59,236 nt of DNA from Candidatus Iainarchaeum sp. (lineage in GTDB: Archaea > Iainarchaeota > Iainarchaeia > Iainarchaeales > VGJJ01), in the NCBI GenBank assembly GCA_016198125.1, contig JACQJG010000017.1, positions 1 through 59,236 of the forward strand. Reading direction: 5' to 3'. Position 1 is the stretch's first letter; every line of letters starts with the position of its first letter. The position numbers and the translations under genes were made by a program. The notes beneath the pieces are model-generated. The model ran no database searches, was not told where the DNA came from, and saw only the letters and a program-made list of their open reading frames with translations. Shown piece by piece: positions 3,345 to 43,763 of the stretch.

Positions 3345-4523
3345 TTACCAGCCATAGTACTGCGCGCGCGAATACCTGAATGCCTTGAACGCGCGCACCA
3401 CGCCTTTTTTGATTAAACCCGGGTAGCGGGTGAGGATTTTAACGGCAATGGAAATATTGCCTGCCAGGTGCACGTTGTTCAACTCCTTTGGAAGCAGGCC
3501 TGCAATCTGGTTTAATTCTTCATCGGAAAACGAGTAGAACAATTCTTTTCCCTTGAGCAGTTCCTCGTAAGGAGGAAACTCTTTTTTCCAGGTGCGTTCG
3601 TACTGTGAAAAGAACTCTTGTGAAAAATTCCCCTGCTCTACAGCGCGCGCGCACACCTCTGCGGCCATTTTTCCTGAAATGAGTCCTAGTTGCGTGCCTC
3701 CTTCAAACATGGGGCTTGTAAAACCAGCCGCGTCTCCCACAAGCAACAATGCCTCGCCATACGTGTTCTTCACAGGCCCTTCTTCCGGGATAAGACCCCC
3801 AAATGCCTTGACCTTGGCTTTAGACTCCCAGCCCATCTCCTTTATAAACTGGTCCAAATTGGCTTTGGCTTTTGGAGACTCGCTTGCAATAATTCCCACA
3901 TTTGCACGGCCATCGTTTTTTGGAATCATCCAAAGATAACCAAAAGGCGCAAGCTTGGGCCACAAATAAAAATCCAGGTACCCATCCGTTGGAATGTCCA
4001 GCATTTCATACTGCATTCCAGTGACTGCTTTAAAGCGCGGGTTCAAATTAAGTTTGCGCGACGCAATGCTCTGCACGCCGCTCGCATCAATGACCGCGCG
4101 CGAACGGAATATTCTTCCATTGGAGCATTTCAACCCCCATTCACTGCCCTGCCTGTTTAACTCTTCCACACGGCACTGCAATTCCAGTTGCGCACCAGCA
4201 TCTACAGCCATGCGTGAAATCCATTGTTCGAACAAATGTTTTTCCAATACCACTCCGGGTTCAGTGAGCTTTGAATAGGTTTTATTTGGAAACACCACGC
4301 GCACGCCTTTGACATTCAATGCCACGGCTTCTTTTGGAGGCTTGAATCCAAACCGTTCAAAAGCCACATCGGACAGGCATTCCCCACAATGCACGGGCTC
4401 GCCTATTTTTGCATGCTCTTCGAGCAAAACCGTTTTCAATCCCTGCTTGGCCGCATGCAAGGTCGCGCTGCCCCCGGCGGGTCCAGCCCCAATGACTGCC
4501 ACGTCAAATAATTCCCCTTGCAT
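3345..4523 (-). CDS. Geranylgeranyl reductase family FAD-dependent oxidoreductase
   Basis: The protein has 392 residues. The N-terminal Rossmann motif DVAVIGAGPAGGSA binds the FAD ADP moiety. VHCGECLSD near residue 50 corresponds to the Cys-bearing motif of geranylgeranyl reductases, and LLVGDAAGFTSPMFEGGTQ near residue 270 is the second FAD motif. In archaea this family saturates the isoprenoid chains of membrane lipids (digeranylgeranylglycerophospholipid reductase) or of quinones. A TATA-like box (4547-4556) lies about 27 nt upstream of ATG 4523, which supports this start. A second, distinct family member lies at 13187-14416, and which one handles lipid and which another substrate cannot be told from sequence. 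Confidence 0.85.
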   Translation of the reverse strand: MQGELFDVAVIGAGPAGGSATLHAAKQGLKTVLLEEHAKIGEPVHCGECLSDVAFERFGFKPPKEAVALNVKGVRVVFPNKTYSKLTEPGVVLEKHLFEQWISRMAVDAGAQLELQCRVEELNRQGSEWGLKCSNGRIFRSRAVIDASGVQSIASRKLNLNPRFKAVTGMQYEMLDIPTDGYLDFYLWPKLAPFGYLWMIPKNDGRANVGIIASESPKAKANLDQFIKEMGWESKAKVKAFGGLIPEEGPVKNTYGEALLLVGDAAGFTSPMFEGGTQLGLISGKMAAEVCARAVEQGNFSQEFFSQYERTWKKEFPPYEELLKGKELFYSFSDEELNQIAGLLPKELNNVHLAGNISIAVKILTRYPGLIKKGVVRAFKAFRYSRAQYYGW

Positions 4524-5418: not shown

Positions 5419-6033
5419 TTAATGCATTTCCCGCTGCCTTATTTCTGGAATGTGCAGGTGCTCTACAATCCCTGCAGGCGCCTTCCAGTCCAGGTTTTGC
5501 ATGAACACGTCCACGTATTTCTTTTTTTGCGTGCCATAATCCAGAAAATACGCGTGCTCGTACACGTCCAATACCACAATGGTTGAACAATCCCAAATGC
5601 CTCCATGGTTGTGCACGTCTGCAATGTAATTGTGCAGTCTCAAGTCTTTCCAGTCAAATGCAAGCACTACCCACCCCCGGCTTGCAAGCCCCAATGCCTT
5701 AAACTCTGCTTCCCATTTTTCATAGCTTCCAAAGTCTTCTTCAATCATTTTCAGCAGGTACCCTGAGGGCTTTCCTCCAGGGCCGCCCATGCACGCAAAG
5801 TAATCCTCGTGCAGCCTTACCCCGTTTACGGCAAAACTTTCTTCAACCTTTAACTCGCGCAAATCCGAAAAGGTTGCATTGGCTGAAGTCAGGTCAACAC
5901 TTTTCAGTTTTTCCCGGATTTCCCCTGTTTTTTTCACGTAGCCTGCGTACAGTACATCATGGTGTTCTGCAAGCTGTTTTTCAGTCAACCCATTCAACGA
6001 CTTGTATTTCAACGGCTGGACTTGTCCTTCCAT
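5419..6033 (-). CDS. sod: Superoxide dismutase (Fe/Mn family)
   Basis: The protein has 204 residues, a normal length. The metal ligands of the Fe/Mn family are visible: a His in AEHHDVLYAGYV (24/25), His75 in RLHEDYF, and Asp156 and His160 in LDVYEHAYFLDYG. It disproportionates superoxide in the cytoplasm. Fe versus Mn cannot be decided from sequence alone. The start is backed by GGAGGA about 9 nt upstream. The gene starts 15 bp after the Rieske gene, so the two form one operon, consistent with oxidative-stress defence. Confidence 0.93.
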   Translation of the reverse strand: MEGQVQPLKYKSLNGLTEKQLAEHHDVLYAGYVKKTGEIREKLKSVDLTSANATFSDLRELKVEESFAVNGVRLHEDYFACMGGPGGKPSGYLLKMIEEDFGSYEKWEAEFKALGLASRGWVVLAFDWKDLRLHNYIADVHNHGGIWDCSTIVVLDVYEHAYFLDYGTQKKKYVDVFMQNLDWKAPAGIVEHLHIPEIRQREMH

Positions 6034-6429: not shown

Positions 6430-7017
6430 TTATTTTACTATCACGGTTCCCTGCATGAATGGGTGAAGGGCGCAATGGTAAGGAAATGTCCCCGTCATGT
6501 TGAACGTATGCACGTATTCACCGCCTTTTTCCAAAATTCCAGACCCAAAACCACTGCCATCAAACGTAACCGTGTGCAGTGCCTGGTCTTGATTTGCCCA
6601 TTTAACCGTTTGTCCCTTGCTTATTACACTTGTTTGGGGCAGGAATGAAAAGTTTGCAATAAGCGCTTTGTCCGTAAAAGAACTGGTAGCAGGACCATAA
6701 ACAGGAATGGAAGAAGTCCAGGGAGAAGGAATGGTAACGGGCGGTTGCGTGTAATAATTGCTTGGTCCCATGAAAACAAGGGTTGGAGGGTAAGAATAGA
6801 ATGCGCCATACGCGCTGGGAACAGAAGGATAATAGGGAATGGTCGGATACGGATTGGAATAATATGCGTTGTAATACTGCGGGCTTGGAATGCCCGTGAA
6901 CGGCGAAAAGGGATTTTGAAAACCTCCAAAAGTCCAGTACGCTCCAATTGCAGATGCGGGCACGGCGGTTAAAATAATTGCCAACCAAAATGCAATTCCT
7001 TTCACACGTGCGCGCAT
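6430..7017 (-). CDS. Secreted cupredoxin (blue copper protein)
   Basis: From ATG 7017 the protein is 195 residues. It has a signal peptide or anchor (VKGIAFWLAIILTAVPASA), a Pro/Tyr/Ser-rich linker of about 80 residues, and a C-terminal cupredoxin domain. The type-1 copper ligands are His148 (ALHTVTF), Cys182 and His185 (YHCALHPFMQG), and Met188. The short C-x2-H-x2-M spacing matches halocyanin-like archaeal proteins. It would carry electrons outside the membrane. No copper oxidase is in the window. The frame extends to 7116, but only the inner start gives a clean signal peptide. Confidence 0.88.
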   Translation of the reverse strand: MRARVKGIAFWLAIILTAVPASAIGAYWTFGGFQNPFSPFTGIPSPQYYNAYYSNPYPTIPYYPSVPSAYGAFYSYPPTLVFMGPSNYYTQPPVTIPSPWTSSIPVYGPATSSFTDKALIANFSFLPQTSVISKGQTVKWANQDQALHTVTFDGSGFGSGILEKGGEYVHTFNMTGTFPYHCALHPFMQGTVIVK

Positions 7018-7125
7018 ACATGGTTTATTTTCCAACGTTCTTATAAAATAATCCTGGATTATTACGTGCTGGCGTTTACCCGCGCGAGTTTTGGCCTTCG
7101 CAAGATTTTTAAACACAATTTTCTT

Positions 7126-7569
7126 ATGTCAGGCATGCAGGAAGAAAAGACCTACTATTCATTGGAGGACGCACGCAAGCTCATTCCGTTTGTAGGTAAA
7201 AAACTGCGCAGACTCCAAAAACTCAACGCTGAAATTTCAGTCATGAACGCATTTCACATAAACTTCAAAGGAGACTCCATTGAAAACCGCCTGAAGGCCA
7301 TTGAATTGAACAAGAATTACCACAAGGCCATGCACGCGTTCTATTCCGGTTTGGAAGACATTACGTCCAAAGGCTTGGTTATAAAGGATTTTGACCAGGG
7401 CCTTGTGGACTTTTACTCGAAAATGGACGGCCAGGATATTTTCCTGTGCTGGAAGCTGGGAGAAAAAACCATTGACCATTGGCACACGGTTGAAACAGGG
7501 TATTCCAGTCGCCAGCCCGTTCGCATCCTGCGGGAGCAGTACGAGAAAAAACTCAAGGAACTTTTGTGA
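7126..7569 (+). CDS. DUF2203 family protein
   Basis: The protein is about 147 residues and matches my recollection of the DUF2203 family: an N-terminal YYSLEDARKLIPFVGKKL helix region and a C-terminal DIFLCWKLGEKTIDHWH segment. The function of that family is not known to me. A TATA-like ATTTTTAAAC (7105-7114) lies just upstream, so translation begins at 7126 or at the in-frame ATG 7135. Its 3' end overlaps the end of the convergent receiver-like gene by 17 bp. Confidence 0.75.
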   Translation: MSGMQEEKTYYSLEDARKLIPFVGKKLRRLQKLNAEISVMNAFHINFKGDSIENRLKAIELNKNYHKAMHAFYSGLEDITSKGLVIKDFDQGLVDFYSKMDGQDIFLCWKLGEKTIDHWHTVETGYSSRQPVRILREQYEKKLKELL

Positions 7570-7919: not shown

Positions 7920-9311
7920 TCATTTGCCTCTGCCAAGTATTTTTTCTATGCGTCCTTCGTCCAATGCCTTTTCTTCCAATAAAACCGCGCGCAGGGATTT
8001 TCCTTCCTTCACGGCTTTGTGCACCAGCCTTGCAACGGTATCATATCCCAATAAGGGCACGAGTTTGGTAGAGTGAATGAGGCTGTTCTCTTCCATTTCC
8101 TGGATTCTCTTCCTGTCCGCTTGAATGCCTTTAACGCATTTTTCATTCAATGCACGCAGCGCATTTTCCAACAAGTGCATGGCCTTGAACAGGTTGTATG
8201 CAATGAGGGGGGTCATTACATTCAATTCCAGTTGTCCTTCCCCGGCGCTCATGCGCACTGCCTCAGCGTGCGCGCGCACCTGCACGCACGCCATGCGCAC
8301 GGCCTCCGGAATGGAAGGATTCACTTTTCCTGGCATAATGGAAGAACCCGGTTCAACCGCTGGCAGTATCAATTCTCCAAAACCCGCGCGCGGCCCGGAG
8401 GAGAGCAAAATGAAGTCGTCGCATATTTTATGCACGTCTATTGCAAGGCTTTCAAGGGCGTCCGCCCATTCCACAAACGCGCGCATGTTCTGTGTCAGGT
8501 ATATTTTTTCTCGCGAAGGCCGCAGTTTGATTTTTGTGAGGCGTGTAAGTTCTTTGATTACGCGTTTGTCAAATCCCTTGGGCGCGTTCAACCCGGTTCC
8601 AATGGCCGTGCCTCCAAGAGACAACTCTTCGAGGTCGCGTGCTGCGCGTTCAAGTTCTTTCTGCGCACGCGCAATGGAAACGCTGTACGCGTGAAACTCT
8701 TCCCCCAAGGTAATGGGCACTGCATCCTGCAGGTGCGTGCGCCCGACCTTTTGTATTTTCCTAAGTTTTTTTGCCTGGCCTTCAAGGGCCCGTGAAAGGC
8801 CGTGGGTTTCCTTTTTCAATTCCTTCCAAAGAAAAAGGCACGCGATTTTTATTCCGCTTGGAATTACGTCATTGGAAGATTGGCCCATGTTCACATGATC
8901 GTTGGGGTGAACCGGTTTGTACCGGCCTTTTGGTTTTCCCAGCGCCTCATTCGCCTGGTTGGCTAAGACTTCATTTACGTTCATATTTACAGGCGTTCCA
9001 GCCCCGGCCTCAAACGGGTCCAACACGAATTCTTTGCCCAGCGCGCCTTTTTCCACTTTCAGGCACGCGCGTTCAATGGCATGAAACGCTCTTGCACCCA
9101 GCTTTTTGAGCGCATAATTGGTTCTTGCGCTTGCATGCTTGATGAGGGCAAGGGAGTAAATGAATATTTGCGGAAACGTTTCTCCGGAAAGTTCAAAGTT
9201 TTCAAGCGCGCGCTGGGTGAAAATGCCGTACTCTGCTTTGGCGGGCACGCGTTTTGGGCCGAGGGCATCGCGTTCCACTCTTGTTTTTTTGCCTTTTCTG
9301 GAGCGTTTCAT
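7920..9311 (-). CDS. Aspartate ammonia-lyase / class II fumarase family lyase
   Basis: The protein has 463 residues. The superfamily signature GSSIMPGKVNP is at 322-332, the SSND loop at 145-148 and GRTHLQDAVP near 190-199. It makes fumarate from aspartate (aspartase) or interconverts malate and fumarate (fumarase). Several details lean to aspartase: EAGAGT at 101-106, QDAVP rather than QDATP, NPSIPE after the signature, and YGIFTQRALENF. Others, such as VHPNDHVNM and SSND, are shared with fumarase. The gene lies between malic enzyme and the receiver-like gene in the operon with frdAB, so its fumarate probably feeds FrdAB. The specificity call is tentative; the family call is firm. Confidence 0.9.
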   Translation of the reverse strand: MKRSRKGKKTRVERDALGPKRVPAKAEYGIFTQRALENFELSGETFPQIFIYSLALIKHASARTNYALKKLGARAFHAIERACLKVEKGALGKEFVLDPFEAGAGTPVNMNVNEVLANQANEALGKPKGRYKPVHPNDHVNMGQSSNDVIPSGIKIACLFLWKELKKETHGLSRALEGQAKKLRKIQKVGRTHLQDAVPITLGEEFHAYSVSIARAQKELERAARDLEELSLGGTAIGTGLNAPKGFDKRVIKELTRLTKIKLRPSREKIYLTQNMRAFVEWADALESLAIDVHKICDDFILLSSGPRAGFGELILPAVEPGSSIMPGKVNPSIPEAVRMACVQVRAHAEAVRMSAGEGQLELNVMTPLIAYNLFKAMHLLENALRALNEKCVKGIQADRKRIQEMEENSLIHSTKLVPLLGYDTVARLVHKAVKEGKSLRAVLLEEKALDEGRIEKILGRGK

Positions 9312-9344: not shown

Positions 9345-10607
9345 CTACTTGGATTTTTGGGCCTTTCCAATGCGCTGAATGACTTTCTTCTCGTACTCAG
9401 CACCGTTTCCTGGGTTTGTTTGCGCGACGCCTTGTTTGAGCGCGGCTTCCACGGTCCTGCGTGCCACGCGCGCAGCCACTTTGGGTTCAAGAGAAGATGG
9501 AATAATCGCATGAGTGCCGGGCCTTGGAATCATTTCGGCTATTCCATGCGCTGCCATGGTCATCATTTCAAGGGTAATGCGCTTGGCCCTGCAGTCCAGC
9601 ACGCCGCGCATGAAACCAGGGAATACCACTGAATTGTTGACCTGGTTTTCGTACAATGAACTGCCGGTTGCCACAATGAAAGCCCCGGCCTTTTTTGCAA
9701 GGCCAGGTTCTATTTCAGGAGTGGGGTTTGCAAGTGCAAACACAATGGCCTTGGAATTCATGGATTGCACCATGGCAGGCGTTAAAATGTTTCCCTGCGA
9801 GGCTCCAATGAACACGTCTGCACCCTGAATGATTTGGGCAAGGCTTCCCTCTTCGTGATTGGGGTTTGTGGCCGATGCAAGCAGGGTCTTTTTTTCATCC
9901 ATGTGCTGGGGCCTGCCCGCGTAAATGGCTCCCTGCGAATCCAGGACAATAACGTTTTGGGCTCCGCCTGCCAACAGGAGGCGGGTAATGCCTGTGCCTG
10001 CAGCGCCAGCGCCGTTCATGACGATTTTTGCTTTGCCCAAATCCTTGCGCGCAAGCTTTAACGCGTTCAAAAGCCCTGCGAGCACAGCCATTCCAGTGCC
10101 CTGGTTGTCATCATGGAAGACCGGAACTTCCAATTCCTTTTCAAGGACTTCAAGCACTTCAAAGCATTTGGGGGCTTTGATGTCTTCCAGGTGAATGCAC
10201 CCGAAGGAGGGTTGAATGAGTTTGCACATTTCAATGATGGTGGCCGCGCCGTTTTCTTTAATGCAAATGGGAACCGCATTCACGTCCCCCAGCCACTTGT
10301 ACAGCATGGACTTTCCTTCCATTACCGGGAGCCCTGCCTCAGGCCCAATGTCCCCCAGGCCAAGGATGCGCGACCCGTCTGTTACAATGGCAATGGTGTT
10401 GGACTTTGAAGTGTAATCCCATACCCGTGAAGGGTGTTCCCTGATTTCAAGGCACGCATGGGCAACTCCAGGCGTGTACGCAAGCGCCAAATCGGCCTTG
10501 TTTTTCAAGGGCTTGGCCACGCGAATGCCAATCTTTCCCGGAAAAGGCAGGGAATGGTATTCCAAGGCCCTGCGTTTCAGTTTTAGGTCTTGCGCATTCA
10601 TAAGCAT
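9345..10607 (-). CDS. NAD(P)-dependent malic enzyme
   Basis: The protein is 420 residues, typical of the short prokaryotic enzymes. Visible motifs are LALAYTPGVAHACLEI, the metal and substrate region EDIKAPKCFEVLE, HDDNQGTGMAVLAGLLNAL, and the nucleotide-binding loop VMNGAGAAGTGI. The enzyme decarboxylates malate to pyruvate or works in reverse. No phosphotransacetylase-like C-terminal extension is present. It follows frdB by 60 bp in the same operon and precedes the lyase gene by 33 bp. The ATG may be 10607 or 10601. Confidence 0.93.
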   Translation of the reverse strand: MLMNAQDLKLKRRALEYHSLPFPGKIGIRVAKPLKNKADLALAYTPGVAHACLEIREHPSRVWDYTSKSNTIAIVTDGSRILGLGDIGPEAGLPVMEGKSMLYKWLGDVNAVPICIKENGAATIIEMCKLIQPSFGCIHLEDIKAPKCFEVLEVLEKELEVPVFHDDNQGTGMAVLAGLLNALKLARKDLGKAKIVMNGAGAAGTGITRLLLAGGAQNVIVLDSQGAIYAGRPQHMDEKKTLLASATNPNHEEGSLAQIIQGADVFIGASQGNILTPAMVQSMNSKAIVFALANPTPEIEPGLAKKAGAFIVATGSSLYENQVNNSVVFPGFMRGVLDCRAKRITLEMMTMAAHGIAEMIPRPGTHAIIPSSLEPKVAARVARRTVEAALKQGVAQTNPGNGAEYEKKVIQRIGKAQKSK

Positions 10608-10666: not shown

Positions 10667-11446
10667 CTAAACCTTTTTAATTCCTTTCCTGTGTGCCATG
10701 CGCTGAAGGGCGCGCGTTTTTTGGCCTGGAAAAATGCCCCGCGGGCAGGAATTGGCCGCGTTCAAGTCCCATTCAATGCCCAAAAGGCCTTCACGCGCCA
10801 ACGCGTTCAATCGCTCTGCCTTTCCTGCATCGCGCGCATCCAGTTGATACCGGTACGCTTTAACCGCTGCAGCTGGATTCAAGTGGCCTTCCATGTAAAG
10901 TGCGCCTGCATTTGAATCGCACACCATGCACAGGATGCACGTTGGACTTTTTCCCAACGCCTTCCATTCCCTTGGAGTCATGCGGTGCGCGCGCTTTTCC
11001 TCGTCTTTGCGCGGAACCAGGAATGGAACCCCCTTGAAAAACGTGTTCATGAATGAATGTTCATTCACCGCCAAATCCCTTACAACGAGGCGCCCGCTCA
11101 AGGGTTCCAGTGAAAGAGCCCCCTTGTTTTCACGTGCAGCCTCCAATGCCTGCACCGTGCATGCAAGCCATGCCTTTCCATTCACTTTCATTCCGCACCC
11201 TCCGCATACTCCGTTGGAACAATTGCGCTTGAATGTGAGCGTGGAATCCTGGCCCTGTTTTATTTCCTCCAGGCAATCCAGCACGGTTTGGCCGGAATGC
11301 GCGTGCACATGAAAAGACTGGAAAAAACCCGCGGGCTGCACTTCAGGCTGAAAACGCGCAATGTTGAATGTGATTCTCTCCGATTCAAAGTGCTCTTTGT
11401 ACACGCGCTTGTGATGCTTGGCATGAATGCGCGCGCTTCCAGGCAT
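10667..11446 (-). CDS. frdB: Fumarate reductase/succinate dehydrogenase iron-sulfur subunit lacking the [3Fe-4S] cluster
   Basis: The protein has 259 residues. The N-terminal ferredoxin domain has all four [2Fe-2S] Cys: 76, 81, 84 and 96. The C-terminal domain keeps the four [4Fe-4S] Cys: 170, 173 and 176 (CILCMVC) and 234 (SCPRGIFP). The three [3Fe-4S] ligands of the family are replaced: Ala180 instead of the Cys before Pro, and Ile224 and Ala230 in place of the two upstream of CP. Domain lengths are otherwise normal, so this is not a frameshift. That cluster normally exchanges electrons with quinone. frdA overlaps or abuts directly, and no membrane subunit genes follow. Another electron donor must be considered. 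Confidence 0.9.
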   Translation of the reverse strand: MPGSARIHAKHHKRVYKEHFESERITFNIARFQPEVQPAGFFQSFHVHAHSGQTVLDCLEEIKQGQDSTLTFKRNCSNGVCGGCGMKVNGKAWLACTVQALEAARENKGALSLEPLSGRLVVRDLAVNEHSFMNTFFKGVPFLVPRKDEEKRAHRMTPREWKALGKSPTCILCMVCDSNAGALYMEGHLNPAAAVKAYRYQLDARDAGKAERLNALAREGLLGIEWDLNAANSCPRGIFPGQKTRALQRMAHRKGIKKV

Positions 11447-13156
11447 TTAATACCGCCTCTCAACAGGTTTTATTCTCCTGATGACTACTGGCTTGTACCC
11501 CACTTCAATGCGGCCTTTTACCAGCCATGCAAGCGAGTGCTTTAACCAGATTGCATCGTTGCGCATTGGGAAATCCGTGCGGTAATGCGAGCCCCTGCTT
11601 TCCTGGCGCGCCAAAGCGCTTTCAACAATGGCAAAAGAAAAATCCAGCATGTTCTGGGTTTCCAAGGCTTCGGCAAGAGCCGTGTTGAACTGCGTGCTTG
11701 TGTCTCCAATGTTCCATTTGAATGACTCAACTTTGCATGCCCTTAGCCTGCGCTGCAGTGCACGCAACCCGCGTTCATTTCTAAATACCCCGCAATGGCG
11801 CATCATTAGCCGTTGAATGTTCCTGCGCGTGTCATACGGGTTGCATTTTCCCCTGCCTTTCAACAGGGCATGCACGCGTTTTTGTGCATGATTTTCATGT
11901 TTTGCACGGGGCGCTGGCCACGTTTGGTTTTTAACGAAAGAAGCCATTTCCTTTCCGGCCATGCGCCCAAACACAAGGGTTTCCAGCAAAGAATTTCCGC
12001 CCAAGCGGTTGCCTCCATGCACGCTCAAACATGCACACTCCCCGGCAGCATACAATCCTTTAACCGGCGTATTGCGTTCATTTAAAACCACGCGCGTGCG
12101 CACATCCGTTGGAATCCCGCCCATGGAATAATGGGCCGTTGGAATTACCGGCACCAATTCACGTGCCACGTCAATGCCCAGTGCATCCAGCACGCTTCTT
12201 CTTACTTCCGGCAACCGTTCAAGGATTTTCTTTTCCCCCAAATGGCGCAAGTCCAGGAACACGTGGTCTTTCCTTGGACCCGCGCCGTTTCCATTGCTAA
12301 TTTCAGTTTGAATGGCGCGCGATACAATGTCCCTGCTTGCAAGCTCCATGGCATGCATTGCATACCGTTTCATGAAACGCTCATTCTTTCCATTCAAGAG
12401 GTGCGCGCCTTCCCCCCTGGAAGCTTCGCTCACCAAGTGGCCTTTTCCATAAATTCCTGTCGGGTGAAATTGCACGAATTCCATGTCCTCCAAAGGCAAG
12501 CCGGCATGCAAAGCCAACGCCAATCCATCTCCCGTGTTTGCATGCCCGTTGGAGGTAACGGAAAACGCCCTGCCATACCCCCCGGTTGCAAGAAGCACGG
12601 CCTTTGCATAAATTCTTTCAATGTTTCCGCTTGCAAGGTCGTACACTACAAGGCCCTTGCACGCGTTCTTTTCCATGATTAATTCAAGCCCGTAGTGTTC
12701 TGCGTAAATCACGGGCCTGAATTTCATTAACTGGTCATACAGCGTGTGAAGCAAGGCATGCCCGGTTCTGTCTGCGGCATAGCACGTGCGGTTAAAACGC
12801 TGGCCTCCAAACGCGCGCTGGGCAATGCTTCCATCCCTGTTCCGCGAGAAAACAACGCCCAAGGATTCCAGTTCAAGTACGTTGCGCTTGGCTTCCCTGC
12901 ACAAAACTTCCACTGCGTCCTGGTCTGCCAAAAAATCCGAGCCATAAATGGTGTCATACGCATGGTCTTTCCACGAATCCTTTTCATTCAACGCCGCGTT
13001 TATTCCACCCGCGGCGGCCACTGAATGGCTGCGCACAGGCATGACCTTGGAAACGATTGCCACCTCAGCGCCCAAGCGCAGTGCCTCCAACGCCGCGCGC
13101 TGGCCCGCAAGGCCCGCTCCAACAATAAGCACTTCATGGCGTTTCATTTCATGCAC
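11447..13156 (-). CDS. frdA: Fumarate reductase/succinate dehydrogenase flavoprotein subunit
   Basis: The protein has 569 residues. It has the FAD loop VLIVGAGLAGQRAA near residue 10 and RSHSVAAAGGINAAL with His44, the position of covalent FAD attachment in complex II. The active-site region is HPTGIYGKGHLVSEASRGEG, and the capping region is PTAHYSMGGIPTD. It catalyses fumarate/succinate interconversion and is followed at once by frdB. It may sit in the cytoplasm, because no anchor subunits are in the operon. The direction cannot be read from sequence; neighbours that make fumarate suggest reduction. Confidence 0.94.
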   Translation of the reverse strand: MHEMKRHEVLIVGAGLAGQRAALEALRLGAEVAIVSKVMPVRSHSVAAAGGINAALNEKDSWKDHAYDTIYGSDFLADQDAVEVLCREAKRNVLELESLGVVFSRNRDGSIAQRAFGGQRFNRTCYAADRTGHALLHTLYDQLMKFRPVIYAEHYGLELIMEKNACKGLVVYDLASGNIERIYAKAVLLATGGYGRAFSVTSNGHANTGDGLALALHAGLPLEDMEFVQFHPTGIYGKGHLVSEASRGEGAHLLNGKNERFMKRYAMHAMELASRDIVSRAIQTEISNGNGAGPRKDHVFLDLRHLGEKKILERLPEVRRSVLDALGIDVARELVPVIPTAHYSMGGIPTDVRTRVVLNERNTPVKGLYAAGECACLSVHGGNRLGGNSLLETLVFGRMAGKEMASFVKNQTWPAPRAKHENHAQKRVHALLKGRGKCNPYDTRRNIQRLMMRHCGVFRNERGLRALQRRLRACKVESFKWNIGDTSTQFNTALAEALETQNMLDFSFAIVESALARQESRGSHYRTDFPMRNDAIWLKHSLAWLVKGRIEVGYKPVVIRRIKPVERRY

Positions 13157-13186: not shown

Positions 13187-14416
13187 TCACGCAAACAACA
13201 ACTTCAGGTAAAATAGCGGGGTCAAAAAGTCTTTTTTTGCGTCCTCGTTGGCCAGCATGCCGGAGATGACATTCTGAATGTCCTTGTTGTTTGCAGCCTT
13301 GTCTACAACAAAGTTCAGCAAAGGCGTTATGCGTCCAATGCGCTGGAGCTTGTAACTCGTGTCCAGTTCAGGTCCAATGGCTTCCCACAAGTTTTTATCG
13401 TATTCCCTGAACACGTTTTCAGAAAAATCATTGGCCTTGAATGCCTTTTCAATAATGGGGGCGGCAATGCGCGCGCTCGTCATGGCATTCCCAATCCCCT
13501 CCCCTGAAAACGGGTCTACCAAAGACGCGGCATCGCCAAGCAAAATGTACCCGTTTCCATAGCTTTTGCGGTGAAAGCTTCCAAATGGAAGCGTCCAGCC
13601 CTTTACATCGGACAGGATTTCCGCGCCTTCAAAGCGTTCCTTGAATAATTCATTTTCTTTAATGCACTTGAACATGGCTTCCTGGAGGTTGACTTTCTTT
13701 TTTTTCACATCCGATGTAACCATTCCCACTCCCACGTTTGCATACCCGTCTTGAAGGGGGAAAATCCAAAAATACCCGGGGAGAAGGTCTTTCACAAAGT
13801 GGATTTCAATGTTGTTGGTGTTCCCTTTCACGTTCCTGTAATAAACGCGCAGTGCAATGCAATTGTGTTCCGGTACAATCGTGTTAACTCCCACTTTGGT
13901 TGCAACAATACTCGTGCTTCCATCTGCGCCAATTACGAGTTTTGCCTTGAATTCCTTTGCCTGCTTGGAACCCAGGTCAATGCCTTTAATGCCTGCCACA
14001 AACTTGTTTTCCCACACCAAATCCGTTGCCTGAAACTCTTCAAGCACTGTAACGTTGGGCGTTTTTTTTGCATGCTGGAACAGGTAATTGTCAAAGTGCT
14101 GGCGCATGGCCACATACCCTGCTTCCCTTCCCTCGCCATTCACTTTGAATGGAATATGGAGAATCGTTCCCTTGGGAGAAGAAAAAATGACTCCTTCAAT
14201 GCGTTCATGGGGCACGGCCTGCATGCCTTCCAAGAGGTTCAATTCCCTGAGCACGCGCAAGGCCTTGCCTCCCACGGCATCCCCGCATGTTTTGTCCCTG
14301 GGAAAGCGCGCCTTGTCCACTAAAAGGACTTTGCGTCCCTGGCGTGCAAGGTACATGGCCGCGGAACTGCCTCCAGGTCCCCCACCCACTACAATAACAT
14401 CAAACCGGTTTTCCAT
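13187..14416 (-). CDS. Geranylgeranyl reductase family flavoprotein, first gene of the frd operon
   Basis: The protein has 409 residues. The FAD loop is DVIVVGGGPGGSSAA, followed by FPRDKTCGDAVGGKAL, the conserved Cys region of this family, and LLGDAASLVDPFSGEGIGNA for the second FAD contact. It saturates geranylgeranyl chains of lipids or quinones, or acts on a related substrate. It lies 30 bp upstream of frdA on the same strand. If it modifies a quinone the link to frdAB is direct, but FrdB lacks the usual quinone-side cluster, so the link may only be shared electron supply. A TATA-like box at 14468-14477 probably starts the operon. Confidence 0.85.
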   Translation of the reverse strand: MENRFDVIVVGGGPGGSSAAMYLARQGRKVLLVDKARFPRDKTCGDAVGGKALRVLRELNLLEGMQAVPHERIEGVIFSSPKGTILHIPFKVNGEGREAGYVAMRQHFDNYLFQHAKKTPNVTVLEEFQATDLVWENKFVAGIKGIDLGSKQAKEFKAKLVIGADGSTSIVATKVGVNTIVPEHNCIALRVYYRNVKGNTNNIEIHFVKDLLPGYFWIFPLQDGYANVGVGMVTSDVKKKKVNLQEAMFKCIKENELFKERFEGAEILSDVKGWTLPFGSFHRKSYGNGYILLGDAASLVDPFSGEGIGNAMTSARIAAPIIEKAFKANDFSENVFREYDKNLWEAIGPELDTSYKLQRIGRITPLLNFVVDKAANNKDIQNVISGMLANEDAKKDFLTPLFYLKLLFA

Positions 14417-15968: not shown

Positions 15969-18900
15969 TCACTTCCCCCAGCTTGCAATCAAACCAAACA
16001 AGCCCGAAATAGGCGTAAAGGGTTGAAGCGCATTCTTTGTGTACAACGGGCATGCAAGCACTGTATTTCCCTGTGCGTCCACCACTTCCCTGCACCCTGG
16101 CAGTTTGGGCGAGGCATATGCAACCCCCATTCTTGGCTTTGCGCCCACGGTTGCTGTTGTGCCTGTGGGGGCTTCCAATTCTTCAAGCAAAGGCCCTGTA
16201 CAATCTTCTTCAAATGTTTCAATGCCCAGGTTTCCTTCCGTGTAATTTGCAGTCCTGCAGTTCATGCCTGTTCCATCATCGCGTTGAATGTGGTACAGGC
16301 ATTGTCCTTCTGAAAGGCCTTCAATGGTCCCCGTGTAAACGCCGTCAGATTGTGCGGTTGAAACATTGGCCCCGGACCTGCATGTTTGCAAGTGGCCTTC
16401 AAAGCAGGCCAAATCATCGGGCGCGCATGCAAGGCTTTGACTGGTGCTTTGAGGGGAGGCCAGCATAAGGCCCAAGGCGCGCTGTACCAATTCTTTTACT
16501 CCCACTAAGCGCGTGGCAAATCCTGCGGCCTGGTCCTTGGAAACTCCAGAGGCAAGGCTGTCCTTGATTTCACCCTGCAATGAACGCACTTCCTGCAAGG
16601 CAACCGTGAACTGTTTGGCCGCGCTTTCAAAGTCATGGGCCCTTGAAGGATTTGTTTCTGTCCAATAAATCTGCAAACCCGTGACCTTGAGAGCGGCATC
16701 GTTTAACTTGGTTTCAAGGTCCAAAAGCACCTGGGCCCACTCCAATAATTCGGCAGTAGAAGGCGGTTCCCGTACCACGGCCACTTCTTCTCCTCTCCCG
16801 CTTGTTACACAATAACTGAACGTGATACACCCCTCCGCGCCCGTGAGCACTGAAAGCTGGCCGCCGGCCAACGCACATTGCTCGGCTGCTTCTTTTGGGG
16901 CTTCCTTGGCGCATGAAGTGCCTGCCGTGCTTCTGTCCACGCATGTTAGAACTCCGCACCCTTTGGAATCAAATTGCTCCGTCAAAAGGCCGCCCTGGAC
17001 TGCACAATCCTGTTGCAGCTTTTCATAGTCTCCCACGCTGTGTTTTGGGCACGCATACTGTTCTCCAGGCTCCTGGCACGTTACAGACTTGCACCCGTCC
17101 TTGGTTTCGATGTAGGCCTTGTATCTCTGGGCCTCGCATACGTCAACGACTTTGAAGAGCGTGGCAGGAGCCGGGCACTCGAATTTCTTTTCTTCAAACA
17201 ACCCTGTAGTGTCCTTTCCGGTTAGGTTTTGCCCAAAGTCGCACCATGTATACGCACACACTCCATAAGTGGATTTCTTTGGCGTTCCCCCATAGGAAAG
17301 GCACTGGGATTCCATCAACGGATCCGAGGGCGGGCATTGCGAGGGATCGGTGTACACGCTTTCCTTTGTGCACACGTAAGAGGAACCGCCAGTCACGGCA
17401 TCTTTTACGGGTTCACAATGAACCTGCTGTTCAGTGGAATCAAAAACCGGTTTAACGTCCATGAACAGGCATCCATTTGTGCCCAGTTTGAGGTCTGCTT
17501 TCATGCCCAAGGCCTCTGCTTTGGTCTTCAATTCCTCCAATTGCGCAGGCGTGGGGCACACCGCAATGGGTTCCGGGAATGGAAGGGGCGTTACCACTGC
17601 ACAGTCATTCGCACACGTAAACTCGCCCCCGTTAAACTCGCCTGCATTGCAAATTCCATCCCCGCAGATCCCGGGTTTACAGTCCGTAGGGCAGGAAGTT
17701 TGGCTTTCGCTTAAACTGCACACATAATCCCCGCAAAATGTTTGCTTGCAGTCCACGGAACACGTGGTGGGGCTTTCTCCTAAAACGTATTCGCACAACC
17801 CATTGCCACAGTCCTTGGCTGTATTGGTCTTGCAATCACCTGGACACGATGCACTGGTTTCACCGTTGCTTGCATCGCAGATAAAGTTGCCGCACAAATT
17901 GGTGGCAGGCTTACAATCGCTTGGGCACGTACTGGTGCTTTCGCCTGCTTCACAAATGGCATTGCCGCACGTGGCAGTCCCAGTGGTGGTGCAATTAGAG
18001 GAAGGGTAAAGCGTGCAATAGGACTGCGTTGCACCATACTGCGAAGAAGGCGTGCACCACGTGGCGCCAACCACACTGCATTCCTGGGGTGTATAACACG
18101 CCCACGTGTTCTGTGAATCGCATTTTTGGCAGGGAGAAGTAGAGCACCAGGCATTGTAACCGGAACCGCAAAAGTTTCCTCCAGCGGCTTTACAGGTGTC
18201 CGCATTATAGCATGCCCACAACTGGTTAGAACTGCAGGTGGTGGGAACATAATCCTTTGAAAAACATGAAGAGTACGTGGTGCTTGATTGCAACCACTGC
18301 CCGCCTACACCTTTGCAAGAGGTCTCATCATAGCAATTCCAGTAATTGTCGGACGTGCATTTTGGGCAATAACCCTTTTGATTACAATACCCCGTTTGCC
18401 CGCCATACGTGCTTCCGCTGGACTTGCACCACTCGTTTCCAGCCGATGTGCATGCACTTTCAGTGTAACAGTTTCCAGGCGAGGTAGACGAGCACACGGG
18501 GCACGGGCTGGAATTGCCTTGGCACCAGCCGCTTCCATACCCGCCGGAGGTACACCAATTGCCGTTTCCAGTGGCAGTACAACTTGCCTGGTCATAGCAA
18601 TTAAACGGGTTTGCCGCTGAACACGTGTTGGGCGGAGGCTGGTACCCGCAATCTGTCTGGCATGACGTACTGGTTTCCCCTGCATCACAAATGTAATTTC
18701 CGCAATACCCGGTTCCTCCTCCCCCAGAAGAACAGTCGCTGGGACAGGAAATATAGGTTTCACCGCTTTCACACGTTTTGTTTCCGCACGTGGAACTGCC
18801 CCCGCTTGGACATGAGCTGCTTAAACAATAAGGCACGGTAGTGTTTTGGGTGCACCAGTTTGCTCCTGCGCCTTTGCACGCGGGTTCCGTGTAACAATTC

Positions 18901-20723
18901 CACGGACTCGAGGAATTGCACACCGGGCAGGAACTGGTTGAACATCCTGCACTACTGCCCCACTGGCACCAGTTTGCCCCAACGCCCTTGCATTCGGTTT
19001 CCGTGGTGCACGCATACGTGTTGTTCGGCGAGCACGTTGGACAGGCAACGGTCTGACAGTAACCCCCGCCACCGCTGTATGAACACCAGTAAGCCTTTCC
19101 TGTGTTAGTGCAACTTGTCTGGTCCGTGCAATTCCCTGGACTGGTACTTGAACACGTGGGGCAAGAGCTTGAACAATAGCTTCCACACCATTGGCCTCCC
19201 GCAGCCGTGCATCCACTTTGACTATAACAACCGCTAAAACCGGTGCCGCTAGCAGTACAATCCGGGCAACTTGAAGGAGTAGTACAATACGGGGTCTGGA
19301 CGTTCAAGCACCACTTGCCCCCATACTGGGAACACTGGGTTTGCGGGCAAGAGTAAAGATTGGTTGAAGAGCAACTGCTGCCTCCCCCGCAGTCTCCAGG
19401 GCACGAAGAAGTGGTTTCACCTGAATCGCACACGTAGTTTCCGCAGTACCCGCTGCTCCCCCCGCACGCCGATTGGGTGGAAGAACACCAACTGCCGCAC
19501 CAAAACAATCCAGACCCTGTGCATGTAGCCTGAGTGATGCACCCGGAAGGATTGGATTGAGAACACTCAGAGCTGCTCCCACACTGGTAATCAGGCGAGG
19601 CGCAGAAATTGGTGTTTGAACACCATTTACAGCCGCCGGCCGTGCACGTGCTGCTCGAATAATAATTGCACGAGCTTCCGCCACCTGTGCAACTGTAGGT
19701 GGGTGAATGGCAGGCATTGTCGCTAGTACACCATTTTCCTCCAACTCCCGTGCAGGCAGATTGCGTGGTACACCCCCAGTAATTGGACGAAGAACAGGTG
19801 TTGCTACTCGTGCAACTTGCACTGGAAGAAAAACAATATCCGGACGGGTAAACGTTGTTCACGCACCAATAACCCCCAACCCCCGTGCAGTTGGGGCCGG
19901 TCAAGCAGGCAGGGTAATTCGTGGAAGAGCAATTGCCACCGGTTCCACCCCCGCAGTTGTTGCTGGTGGCATAAGAAGAATAACAATAGTTTTGGGTTGC
20001 ACACCAATACCCGTTCACTGCTGATTGGGTGCAAGTGGCCTGCGTGAGGCATGCTCCAGGATTGGATGCAGAACAACTGGTGCTGCTGCATGGATTGCTT
20101 GCCTGCGTGGCATAACACAAATTGGTTTGAGAGCACCAGAACAGTCCGGCGGCCGCGCACTGGGATTGGGTGCACGCACTCGCATTGGAAGAAGAACAGG
20201 TTTGTTGGGTTTCCGAGCACCACCCGCCAGTGCCGCTGCTATATGGGTTCCAAAAACCCCCGTTGGACGTGCACTCTGTCTGGTTGTTGCAACTGCTCAC
20301 AGAATAAGAACAGTAATTGTTGCACCATTTTCCCCCAACGCCTTGGCACTGGGCTTGTGTAGTGCAATAACTCGTGTACTGGCTTGAACACGTGTACCCG
20401 CAGTCGCTTGGGCACGTGGAACTGGTTTCAAAAGAAGAATAACACGTTCCGTCTCCACAATAACCGCAATTCAATCCTTCCTTGCAATGCCCCAAATAAT
20501 ACTGGGCCGCACAGTCATTTGTAGTGGAAGTGCACTGGCCGCTCTGGCAGGTCGCATACTTGGAAACCGTGGGGCTTTGACAAGACCATGAAGGGCCACA
20601 ATCCGCATCCGTTGTGCACGCCTGCGCGCTGGCAGAGGATGCAAGCGCGATAAAAGACAGGGCCAGAAGGCCTGCCCAGAAAAGGGCGCGTATACTGTGC
20701 AGATTAACTGTTTTGCCACTCAT
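15969..20723 (-). CDS. Giant secreted Cys-rich repeat protein (1584 aa)
   Basis: A signal peptide (IRALFWAGLLALSFIALASS, cleavage near SASAQA) is followed by a region with about 19 imperfect repeats of about 35-50 residues, spanning roughly residues 100-870. The repeat pattern is C[ST]SxxxxxC-x(4)-C-x(3)-GGxWC with a variable Ser/Gly/Thr-rich loop. Interspersed, and then clustered near residues 880-1010, are modules CGN-x-x-C-x-x-GE-x(4)-CPxDC. The C-terminal third has fewer Cys and a helical stretch (EWAQVLLDLETKLND), with no clear membrane anchor. Dozens of Cys suggest a disulfide-locked surface fibre or coat. It heads a three-gene surface cluster. No enzymatic motif is seen. Confidence 0.8.
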   Translation of the reverse strand: MSGKTVNLHSIRALFWAGLLALSFIALASSASAQACTTDADCGPSWSCQSPTVSKYATCQSGQCTSTTNDCAAQYYLGHCKEGLNCGYCGDGTCYSSFETSSTCPSDCGYTCSSQYTSYCTTQAQCQGVGGKWCNNYCSYSVSSCNNQTECTSNGGFWNPYSSGTGGWCSETQQTCSSSNASACTQSQCAAAGLFWCSQTNLCYATQASNPCSSTSCSASNPGACLTQATCTQSAVNGYWCATQNYCYSSYATSNNCGGGTGGNCSSTNYPACLTGPNCTGVGGYWCVNNVYPSGYCFSSSASCTSSNTCSSSNYWGCTTQSACTGVGGKWCTSDNACHSPTYSCTGGGSSCNYYSSSTCTAGGCKWCSNTNFCASPDYQCGSSSECSQSNPSGCITQATCTGSGLFWCGSWCSSTQSACGGSSGYCGNYVCDSGETTSSCPGDCGGGSSCSSTNLYSCPQTQCSQYGGKWCLNVQTPYCTTPSSCPDCTASGTGFSGCYSQSGCTAAGGQWCGSYCSSSCPTCSSTSPGNCTDQTSCTNTGKAYWCSYSGGGGYCQTVACPTCSPNNTYACTTETECKGVGANWCQWGSSAGCSTSSCPVCNSSSPWNCYTEPACKGAGANWCTQNTTVPYCLSSSCPSGGSSTCGNKTCESGETYISCPSDCSSGGGGTGYCGNYICDAGETSTSCQTDCGYQPPPNTCSAANPFNCYDQASCTATGNGNWCTSGGYGSGWCQGNSSPCPVCSSTSPGNCYTESACTSAGNEWCKSSGSTYGGQTGYCNQKGYCPKCTSDNYWNCYDETSCKGVGGQWLQSSTTYSSCFSKDYVPTTCSSNQLWACYNADTCKAAGGNFCGSGYNAWCSTSPCQKCDSQNTWACYTPQECSVVGATWCTPSSQYGATQSYCTLYPSSNCTTTGTATCGNAICEAGESTSTCPSDCKPATNLCGNFICDASNGETSASCPGDCKTNTAKDCGNGLCEYVLGESPTTCSVDCKQTFCGDYVCSLSESQTSCPTDCKPGICGDGICNAGEFNGGEFTCANDCAVVTPLPFPEPIAVCPTPAQLEELKTKAEALGMKADLKLGTNGCLFMDVKPVFDSTEQQVHCEPVKDAVTGGSSYVCTKESVYTDPSQCPPSDPLMESQCLSYGGTPKKSTYGVCAYTWCDFGQNLTGKDTTGLFEEKKFECPAPATLFKVVDVCEAQRYKAYIETKDGCKSVTCQEPGEQYACPKHSVGDYEKLQQDCAVQGGLLTEQFDSKGCGVLTCVDRSTAGTSCAKEAPKEAAEQCALAGGQLSVLTGAEGCITFSYCVTSGRGEEVAVVREPPSTAELLEWAQVLLDLETKLNDAALKVTGLQIYWTETNPSRAHDFESAAKQFTVALQEVRSLQGEIKDSLASGVSKDQAAGFATRLVGVKELVQRALGLMLASPQSTSQSLACAPDDLACFEGHLQTCRSGANVSTAQSDGVYTGTIEGLSEGQCLYHIQRDDGTGMNCRTANYTEGNLGIETFEEDCTGPLLEELEAPTGTTATVGAKPRMGVAYASPKLPGCREVVDAQGNTVLACPLYTKNALQPFTPISGLFGLIASWGK
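18100..20426 (-). repeat. Tandem Cys-rich repeat block inside the giant surface protein
   Basis: There are about 19 diverged units, each beginning CSS/CSA/CTS and ending GGxWC, with recurring gcaccatttgcc-like sense. The repeats are clear in protein but only partly in DNA, so the array is old rather than freshly amplified. Boundaries are approximate. Confidence 0.7.
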
Positions 20724-42767: not shown

Positions 42768-43763
42768 ATGTTGACCGTAATACTAAAAAAAGAAGTCGAA
42801 GGGGTGTTCGTGGACCAGTTCTATTCTTTCAATAGCGTGCTTTTTCCTTCGCGCATCATGAATGCCTCCGGCCCGTTGTGCACGTGGGAACAGGAACTCA
42901 ATGCGCTGGGAGAAAGCGCGAGCGGCGCCATCGTGCTGAAAACCACTACCTTTGAACCGCGTGCAGGAAATGACCGTCCAAAGTACTTTGAAAACGAGTG
43001 GGGGTCCATTAACAGCAATGGGTTGGAAAATTTGGGGTACAAAAAGTACTGTGAACTCATTCCAAAACTCAAGCGTTTCAACAAACCCGTTATTTCCAGC
43101 CTTTCAGGGTTTTCACTGGAAGAATTTACAACCATGGTAGGCGCGCTGGACCAGGCAGGCGCGGACATTCTTGAAATCAACCTGTCCTGCCCCAACATTG
43201 CAGGAAAACCCCAGGTTGCATATGACTTTGAAATGTCCGAAAAATACCTGCACACTATTCGTTCAACAACAGAAAAGCCCTTGTGGGTCAAACTGCCCCC
43301 TTACTTTGAAACCATTCACCGCCAGGAAATGGCGCGCATTTTATTGAAAAATGAAGTGAATGGAGTTACGCTCATCAACTCGCTTGGAAACGCGCTCATC
43401 GTCGACCCCGAAAAAGAACAAGCAGTCATAAAACCCAAGCAAGGCCTTGGGGGTGTGGGAGGAAAATATGTTAAACCGGTTGCACTGGGAAATGTTTTCA
43501 CATTCTCCCAGGAACTTGAAAATAAGATTCCAGTTATCGGAGTTGGGGGCATTTACACGGGCATGGACGCGTTTGAATTCTTTTTGTGCGGCGCTCAACT
43601 TGTACAAATCGGCACTGCATACAAAAGCCAGGGTCCAGGAATCTTTGCGCGCGTGCAAGGCGAGTTGAATGAACTGCTCCAGCGAAAGAATTACGCGCGC
43701 ATCGAGGACGCGATTGGAAAACTCAAAGTTGTTGAAGGTGAAGAATACGGGTTTGGTGCTTGA
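42768..43763 (+). CDS. pyrD: Dihydroorotate dehydrogenase, class 1A (fumarate-type)
   Basis: The protein has 331 residues. NLSCPNIAGKPQVAYDF contains the catalytic Cys141 and is nearly identical to class 1A enzymes of Lactococcus and trypanosomes. IKPKQGLGGVGGKYVKPVAL and PVIGVGGIYTGMDAFEF give the FMN barrel end. Class 1A is cytosolic and passes electrons from dihydroorotate to fumarate, with no PyrK partner. It heads the pyr operon and overlaps pyrC by about 26 bp. The class assignment is by motif and fits the fumarate genes elsewhere in the window. Confidence 0.93.
   Translation: MLTVILKKEVEGVFVDQFYSFNSVLFPSRIMNASGPLCTWEQELNALGESASGAIVLKTTTFEPRAGNDRPKYFENEWGSINSNGLENLGYKKYCELIPKLKRFNKPVISSLSGFSLEEFTTMVGALDQAGADILEINLSCPNIAGKPQVAYDFEMSEKYLHTIRSTTEKPLWVKLPPYFETIHRQEMARILLKNEVNGVTLINSLGNALIVDPEKEQAVIKPKQGLGGVGGKYVKPVALGNVFTFSQELENKIPVIGVGGIYTGMDAFEFFLCGAQLVQIGTAYKSQGPGIFARVQGELNELLQRKNYARIEDAIGKLKVVEGEEYGFGA

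What the first reader, a model, noticed from the sequence alone, without database searches (positions are those of the whole stretch)
10667..11446. FrdB that has lost exactly the three [3Fe-4S] cysteines
The family's four [2Fe-2S] and four [4Fe-4S] Cys are all kept (76, 81, 84, 96; 170, 173, 176, 234). All three [3Fe-4S] ligands are replaced (Ala180, Ile224, Ala230). In complex II (E. coli SdhB Cys159, 206, 212) this cluster hands electrons to or from quinone. Selective loss of one cluster, with no membrane anchor genes in the operon, points to a soluble fumarate reductase with a different electron partner. The mapping to E. coli numbering is from memory of that protein.
Basis: partly seen in the sequence, partly recalled or inferred. 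Interest (0 to 1): 0.8.

Follow-up and report, generated by a model that had tools for sequence, protein, structure and literature searches.

The report
Fumarate reductase missing its third cluster
A family of tiny uncultured archaea keeps a fumarate reductase-like enzyme whose iron-sulfur subunit has lost the last of its three metal clusters, together with the partner subunit that cluster normally feeds, so its electrons must enter or leave by a route that I could not find described.

Summary
FrdB (10667-11446, minus) keeps all eight [2Fe-2S] and proximal [4Fe-4S] cysteines. It has Ala180, Ile224 and Ala230 where E. coli SdhB has Cys159, 206 and 212. This is not one odd MAG: the three other genomes of its GTDB family, Diapherotrites by one named record, show the same loss at 32-38% identity, while 78 relatives keep the distal ligands.

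The nearest relatives are class E (SdhABE) enzymes, whose distal cluster has a fourth Cys and is probably [4Fe-4S]. Here all four distal positions are non-Cys. In 67 of the 78 relatives a CCG (HdrB-like) subunit gene accompanies frdB. None of the four genomes has a CCG domain, Sdh_cyt anchor, complex I, heme-copper oxidase, futalosine-type menaquinone gene, or free ferredoxin. The simplest history is that the distal cluster and its partner subunit went together.

Best reading: a soluble two-cluster FrdAB, probably reducing fumarate with NAD(P)H-derived electrons. Donor and direction are inferred. FrdA keeps the catalytic residues in this genome, but one relative (G074) has lost a key arginine. 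That leaves open a repurposed carrier, perhaps for the neighbouring geranylgeranyl reductases. I rate it a new variant of a known kind.

The parts
10667..11446 (-). FrdB/SdhB-like iron-sulfur subunit, 259 aa: 8 ligand Cys kept, all distal-cluster ligands lost
   Evidence: TIGR00384 152.6 bits, cut-off 88; alignment to 1nek_B and 6lum_B; AlphaFold2 model pLDDT 87.7 with SdhB fold, TM 0.82/0.88 to 1nek_B
11159..11221 (-). codons of the [2Fe-2S] ligands Cys76, 81, 84 and 96
   Evidence: sequence; invariant in the family
10919..10939 (-). codons of the first three proximal [4Fe-4S] ligands Cys170, 173 and 176
10907..10909 (-). codon 180, Ala in place of the first distal-cluster Cys (E. coli SdhB Cys159)
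10757..10777 (-). codons 224-230: Ile224, Asp227 and Ala230 in place of the other distal-cluster Cys
10745..10747 (-). codon 234, the fourth proximal [4Fe-4S] ligand Cys
11447..13156 (-). FrdA/SdhA-like flavoprotein, 569 aa; stop directly abuts the frdB start
   Evidence: TIGR01812 722 bits, cut-off 567; FAD-linking His and substrate residues H242, E255, R286, H354, R399 kept, T254 to Ser, Q50 to Ala in E. coli SdhA numbering
9345..10607 (-). malic enzyme, 59 bp downstream of frdB
   Evidence: PF00390 and PF03949 over cut-off
7920..9311 (-). fumarase/aspartase-superfamily lyase; fumarase versus aspartase undecided
   Evidence: PF00206, PF10415; aspA 442.8 and fumC_II 439 bits, both below cut-off; catalytic motifs present
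13187..14416 (-). geranylgeranyl reductase-family flavoprotein, 30 bp upstream of frdA
   Evidence: TIGR02032 226.6 bits, cut-off 158.8; syntenic in G072, G073 and G074
3345..4523 (-). second GGR-family flavoprotein, syntenic in the family
   Evidence: PF22578 over cut-off
5419..6033 (-). Fe/Mn superoxide dismutase, syntenic in the family
   Evidence: PF02777
7066..7569 (+). DUF2203 protein, near frdAB in all four genomes
   Evidence: PF09969

Best explanation
SHOWN: frdAB descend from a class E (SdhABE/Tfr-like) enzyme group; one archaeal family has lost every ligand of the distal FrdB cluster and encodes no CCG subunit and no recognisable membrane anchor. INFERRED: the product is a soluble FrdAB heterodimer with a shortened chain FAD - [2Fe-2S] - [4Fe-4S], in which the proximal [4Fe-4S] is now the terminal, partner-facing cluster. 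It most likely works as a fumarate reductase that disposes of NAD(P)H-derived electrons made by glycolysis and pyruvate dehydrogenase, with fumarate coming from malic enzyme plus the lyase (or from aspartate). The best donor candidate is the single FNR-like NAD(P)H:flavin reductase found in each of the four genomes, docking at the [4Fe-4S]. The donor, the direction and solubility were not tested.
For: Same ligand loss in four genomes with the other eight Cys invariant. All 78 other relatives keep the distal Cys; 66 have a CCG-subunit ORF just downstream and one more (L095) has an overlapping CCG ORF. The four-genome FrdB clade is supported 100/100 and nested among canonical sequences, so loss is derived; FrdA places them beside a Woesearchaeota class E operon, 91/86, which also has a malic enzyme nearby. 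CCG, Sdh_cyt, complex I, PFOR, MqnA/D and COX1 absent in all four, with working controls. Only ABCE1- and RNA-polymerase-type 4Fe-4S matches and one spurious frame, so no free ferredoxin. One FNR-like protein in each. Pyruvate dehydrogenase genes in G074. FrdA catalytic residues kept in the window, G072 and, where covered, G073. FrdB fold intact. Class E SdhB is described as having a second [4Fe-4S] (PMC2680327).
Against: No donor or activity is shown. The FNR-like gene is not linked to frdAB in this family and also occurs in order members with other or no FrdB. G074 FrdA has R399 to Gly and T254 to Pro and G074 has no class II lyase, so fumarate turnover is doubtful there. The window genome is only 71% complete. 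No coordinates were available to measure how exposed the [4Fe-4S] is. The lysine-rich FrdB N-termini of three relatives could mediate membrane contact.
Confidence: 0.5

Rival explanations
1. FrdAB has been repurposed as a general Fe-S/flavin electron carrier in cells without ferredoxin, for example for the adjacent geranylgeranyl reductases or carotenoid enzymes, and fumarate is no longer its main substrate.
For: Two GGR-family genes, and in G072 and G074 a phytoene synthase and a CrtI-like gene, sit in the same conserved block. No free ferredoxin; GGRs in other archaea often have a ferredoxin or ETF in the locus and M. acetivorans GGR needs its ferredoxin (PMC10821996). In G074 FrdA lost the substrate Arg while FrdB kept all eight Cys.
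Against: Window and G072 FrdA keep all tested catalytic residues, and malic enzyme and lyase sit beside frdAB in the window. Synteny in small genomes can be passive, and a GGR and lyase also lie near an unrelated canonical frd in G071.
Confidence: 0.17
2. The enzyme runs as a succinate oxidase, for example regenerating fumarate for the class 1A dihydroorotate dehydrogenase, which uses fumarate as its oxidant.
For: The window encodes a dihydroorotate oxidase matching NF002702 at 369 bits, cut-off 301. FrdA keeps the FAD-linking His that succinate oxidation generally needs.
Against: No quinone synthesis, terminal oxidase or complex I family was found to take the electrons, and NAD+ is too low in potential for succinate. 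G074 has FrdAB but no hit for this DHOD.
Confidence: 0.1
3. A quinone-linked enzyme with an unrecognised anchor, with the [4Fe-4S] passing electrons to the membrane.
For: G074 has a PAS-fused MenA-like prenyltransferase, 150.8 bits against TIGR02235, cut-off 225. Anchor subunits diverge fast: even the membrane ORF beside canonical frdB in G071 has no Pfam hit. Three relatives have basic N-terminal tails on FrdB.
Against: No multi-pass membrane gene beside frdAB in this family apart from distant, unconserved ones. No MenB/C/D/F hits in G074 and no MqnA/D in any. G072, 94% complete, has only the lipid-type UbiA. Loss of the quinone-side cluster is the opposite of what a quinone enzyme needs.
Confidence: 0.1
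4. A decaying relic on its way to loss.
For: Long FrdB stem branch; G074 FrdA active-site changes; enzyme absent from most of the phylum.
Against: Eight ligand Cys and 58 columns invariant at 32-38% identity, intact reading frames in all four genomes apart from one contig break, conserved synteny.
Confidence: 0.1

Closest known systems
Class E SdhABE enzymes (8-methylmenaquinol:fumarate reductase MfrABE of Wolinella; SdhABEF of Acidianus; SdhABE operons in Chloroflexota, Chlorobiota and Woesearchaeota)
   Same: FrdA and FrdB sequence placement; two-subunit catalytic core; gene order frdA-frdB
   Different: No CCG subunit gene in the genome and no distal-cluster ligands; MfrA is reported without the FAD-linking His (PMC2680327), which is kept here
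Thiol:fumarate reductase TfrAB of methanogens
   Same: Reported as a fumarate reductase without a membrane anchor; FrdB has partial similarity (NF004898, 91 bits)
   Different: TfrB carries a fused CCG/HdrB-like thiol-oxidising part and scores need 385 bits; none here
Classical complex II, SQR/QFR (E. coli SdhCDAB, FrdABCD)
   Same: Fold and eight of eleven ligands; FrdA active site
   Different: No [3Fe-4S] ligands, no SdhC/D or FrdC/D, no quinone pathway found
Soluble NADH-linked fumarate reductase of Hydrogenobacter thermophilus (FrdABCDE; from memory)
   Same: Soluble, multi-subunit, NAD(P)H-driven fumarate reduction is the function proposed here
FrdA-only soluble enzymes (yeast Osm1, Shewanella flavocytochrome c)
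   Same: Complex II homologues that do without quinone (PMC10238741)
   Different: They lack an FrdB subunit; here FrdB is kept with two clusters

Membership tests
SdhB/FrdB iron-sulfur protein family | Score over TIGR00384 cut-off and SdhB fold | tested here: met
   152.6 bits, cut-off 88; Foldseek TM 0.82/0.88 to 1nek_B
SdhB/FrdB iron-sulfur protein family | Four [2Fe-2S] and four proximal [4Fe-4S] Cys | tested here: met
Classical complex II (SQR/QFR) | Three [3Fe-4S] Cys | tested here: not met
   A180, I224, A230
Classical complex II (SQR/QFR) | Membrane anchor subunits | tested here: not met
   No PF01127 in the four genomes; no membrane gene beside frdAB; divergent anchors elsewhere cannot be excluded
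Class E SdhABE | Second [4Fe-4S] motif, C-x2-C-x2-C-x3-C-P | tested here: not met
   Non-Cys at all three upstream positions and at 180
Class E SdhABE | CCG (HdrB-like) SdhE subunit | tested here: not met
   No PF02754 in the four genomes; 12 of 14 controls ring
Thiol:fumarate reductase TfrAB | TfrB-type CCG part | tested here: not met
   259-aa FrdB; no PF02754
Fumarate reductase/succinate dehydrogenase activity | Catalytic residues in FrdA | tested here: met
   Kept in the window and G072; not in G074
Fumarate reductase/succinate dehydrogenase activity | Measured turnover of fumarate or succinate | not testable with these tools
   Needs purified protein

The most novel reading that the evidence does not exclude
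In a lineage without ferredoxin, quinones or a CCG partner, FrdAB has become the cell's stand-in electron carrier, feeding or draining the neighbouring isoprenoid (geranylgeranyl reductase/carotenoid) flavoenzymes through its exposed [4Fe-4S], with fumarate turnover lost altogether in at least one species.
Probability: 0.15. Interest if true: 0.75.

Novelty: new variant of a known kind. Interest (0 to 1): 0.55.

Why it matters
Complex II homologues are usually explained as a fixed three-cluster wire whose last cluster meets a quinone site or a CCG subunit. Here the last cluster and a known partner are both missing in a whole archaeal family, while the other two clusters stay fixed. That gives a natural deletion experiment on how the distal cluster and its partner co-evolve. 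It also makes testable how a small archaeon without recognisable ferredoxin, quinone synthesis or respiratory complexes gets electrons into or out of such an enzyme.

Tried and rejected
Alignment artefact: rejected, because the spacing to C234 is intact and three independent relatives agree. MAG or frameshift error: rejected, four separate genomes. Widespread loss elsewhere: not seen among 78 relatives, but the scan was pre-filtered by two peptide patterns and kept the best 80 of 280, so other cases could be missed. Treating the canonical FrdB of G071 and G037 (same order, followed by membrane ORFs) as the direct ancestor: rejected, since the tree places them elsewhere, next to the E. coli FrdB group. 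Ferredoxin fed by PFOR as donor: disfavoured. Q50 to Ala in FrdA as a special adaptation: rejected, as class E L095 has the same motif. Reading the lyase as fumarase or aspartase from scores: undecided. Literature searches for an SdhB lacking only the distal cluster gave no paper, but many subscription papers are not held. A search of the Woesearchaeota phylum failed for lack of a genome handle.

Full report
OBSERVATION. Alignment to solved SdhB chains puts A180, I224 and A230 on the distal-cluster cysteines of E. coli SdhB and keeps all eight other ligands. The protein passes the NCBIfam dhsB cut-off, but Pfam recognises only its N-terminal [2Fe-2S] domain. An AlphaFold2 model has mean pLDDT 87.7, and its best structural matches are SdhB chains of complex II, so the whole fold is kept. 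No coordinates were available for measuring the empty site.

NOT ONE GENOME. Searching 87 genomes of the phylum found FrdB in six. The three others in the same family (G072, G073, G074) have the same loss. Position 180 is Ala in all four. Two other order members (G071, G037) have canonical FrdB followed by membrane ORFs, but these belong to a different branch.

WHAT IT DESCENDS FROM. A GTDB-wide scan gave 80 loci: two are relatives from this family and 78 are others. All 78 keep the distal cysteines. Seventy of them have a fourth distal Cys. Such a pattern is described for class E enzymes as implying a second [4Fe-4S] in place of [3Fe-4S] (PMC2680327). In 66 a CCG-motif ORF lies just downstream, and in a 67th (L095) it overlaps frdB. 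The FrdB tree makes the four window-family sequences one clade (100/100) inside this diversity, on a long stem, although the exact sister is weakly supported. The FrdA tree puts them next to a Woesearchaeota class E operon at 91/86; that operon too has a malic enzyme nearby.

WHAT THE GENOMES LACK. With controls that ring in well-known genomes, the four family genomes have no Sdh_cyt, complex I 49-kDa, PFOR, MqnA/D, COX1 or CCG. The ferredoxin search returned only ABCE1-sized proteins, the RNA polymerase subunit, and one unconvincing frame; a DPANN survey found ferredoxin in 72.4% of Diapherotrites (PMC8407392). In G074, which was read almost entirely, E. coli MenB/C/D/F, CydAB, CyoABC, GltA and SucCD find nothing, while pyruvate dehydrogenase genes are present. 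UbiA-family proteins are lipid-type or decaprenyl-phosphate-type, except a MenA-like one in G074, below cut-off. The window genome is 71% complete, so absence there alone is weak; G072 (94%) and G074 (96%) carry the argument.

HOW IT LIKELY WORKS. FrdA in the window keeps the FAD-linking His and the substrate residues, and frdA and frdB abut with no gap, followed by malic enzyme and a fumarase/aspartase-type lyase. The simplest working model is fumarate reduction by a soluble heterodimer whose [4Fe-4S] has become the terminal cluster. Each genome has one FNR-like NAD(P)H reductase without its own 2Fe-2S domain, the best available donor candidate. This step is inference: no linkage or interaction was shown. 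In G074 FrdA has lost R399 and T254 and the lyase is gone, yet FrdB keeps eight ligands. That is the main difficulty for a pure fumarate-reductase reading and the main support for repurposing, possibly toward the two syntenic geranylgeranyl reductases, whose reductant in many archaea is a ferredoxin or is unknown (PMC10821996).

VERDICT. Observation confirmed; interpretation partly supported; a new variant of a known kind. The unusual points are the family-wide, selective loss and the missing partner; the function remains a hypothesis.

Noticed in passing
window 3345-4523, 5419-6033, 7066-7569, 13187-14416; L017, L018, L019, L021, L022: Conserved block in the family around frdAB: two GGR-family flavoproteins, Fe/Mn SOD and DUF2203, with phytoene synthase and a CrtI-like gene in G072 and G074.
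   Followed up: partly
L019:11997-13736 (G074 FrdA): FrdA has Gly at the substrate Arg399 position and Pro at Thr254, on a long branch, with an intact frame.
   Followed up: partly
window 42768-43763: Dihydroorotate dehydrogenase matches the class 1A (dihydroorotate oxidase) model over its cut-off; class 1A enzymes use fumarate.
   Followed up: partly
L114:2114-3436 (G074 C2): PAS domain fused to a MenA-like UbiA prenyltransferase, with a polyprenyl synthetase ORF next to it.
   Followed up: partly
L002, L003, L004, L073: Lysine-rich N-terminal tails on FrdB in three family members and the Woesearchaeota relative; short in the window.
   Followed up: no
L012 and L024 (G002): An frdA with no frdB beside it; the only FNR-like gene of that genome lies about 1.3 kb away on the other strand.
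   Followed up: no
window 15969-20723: A 1584-aa protein with many Cys-rich repeats and an N-terminal signal-like segment.
   Followed up: no
window 6430-7116: A secreted cupredoxin-like protein (sequence reading only).
   Followed up: no
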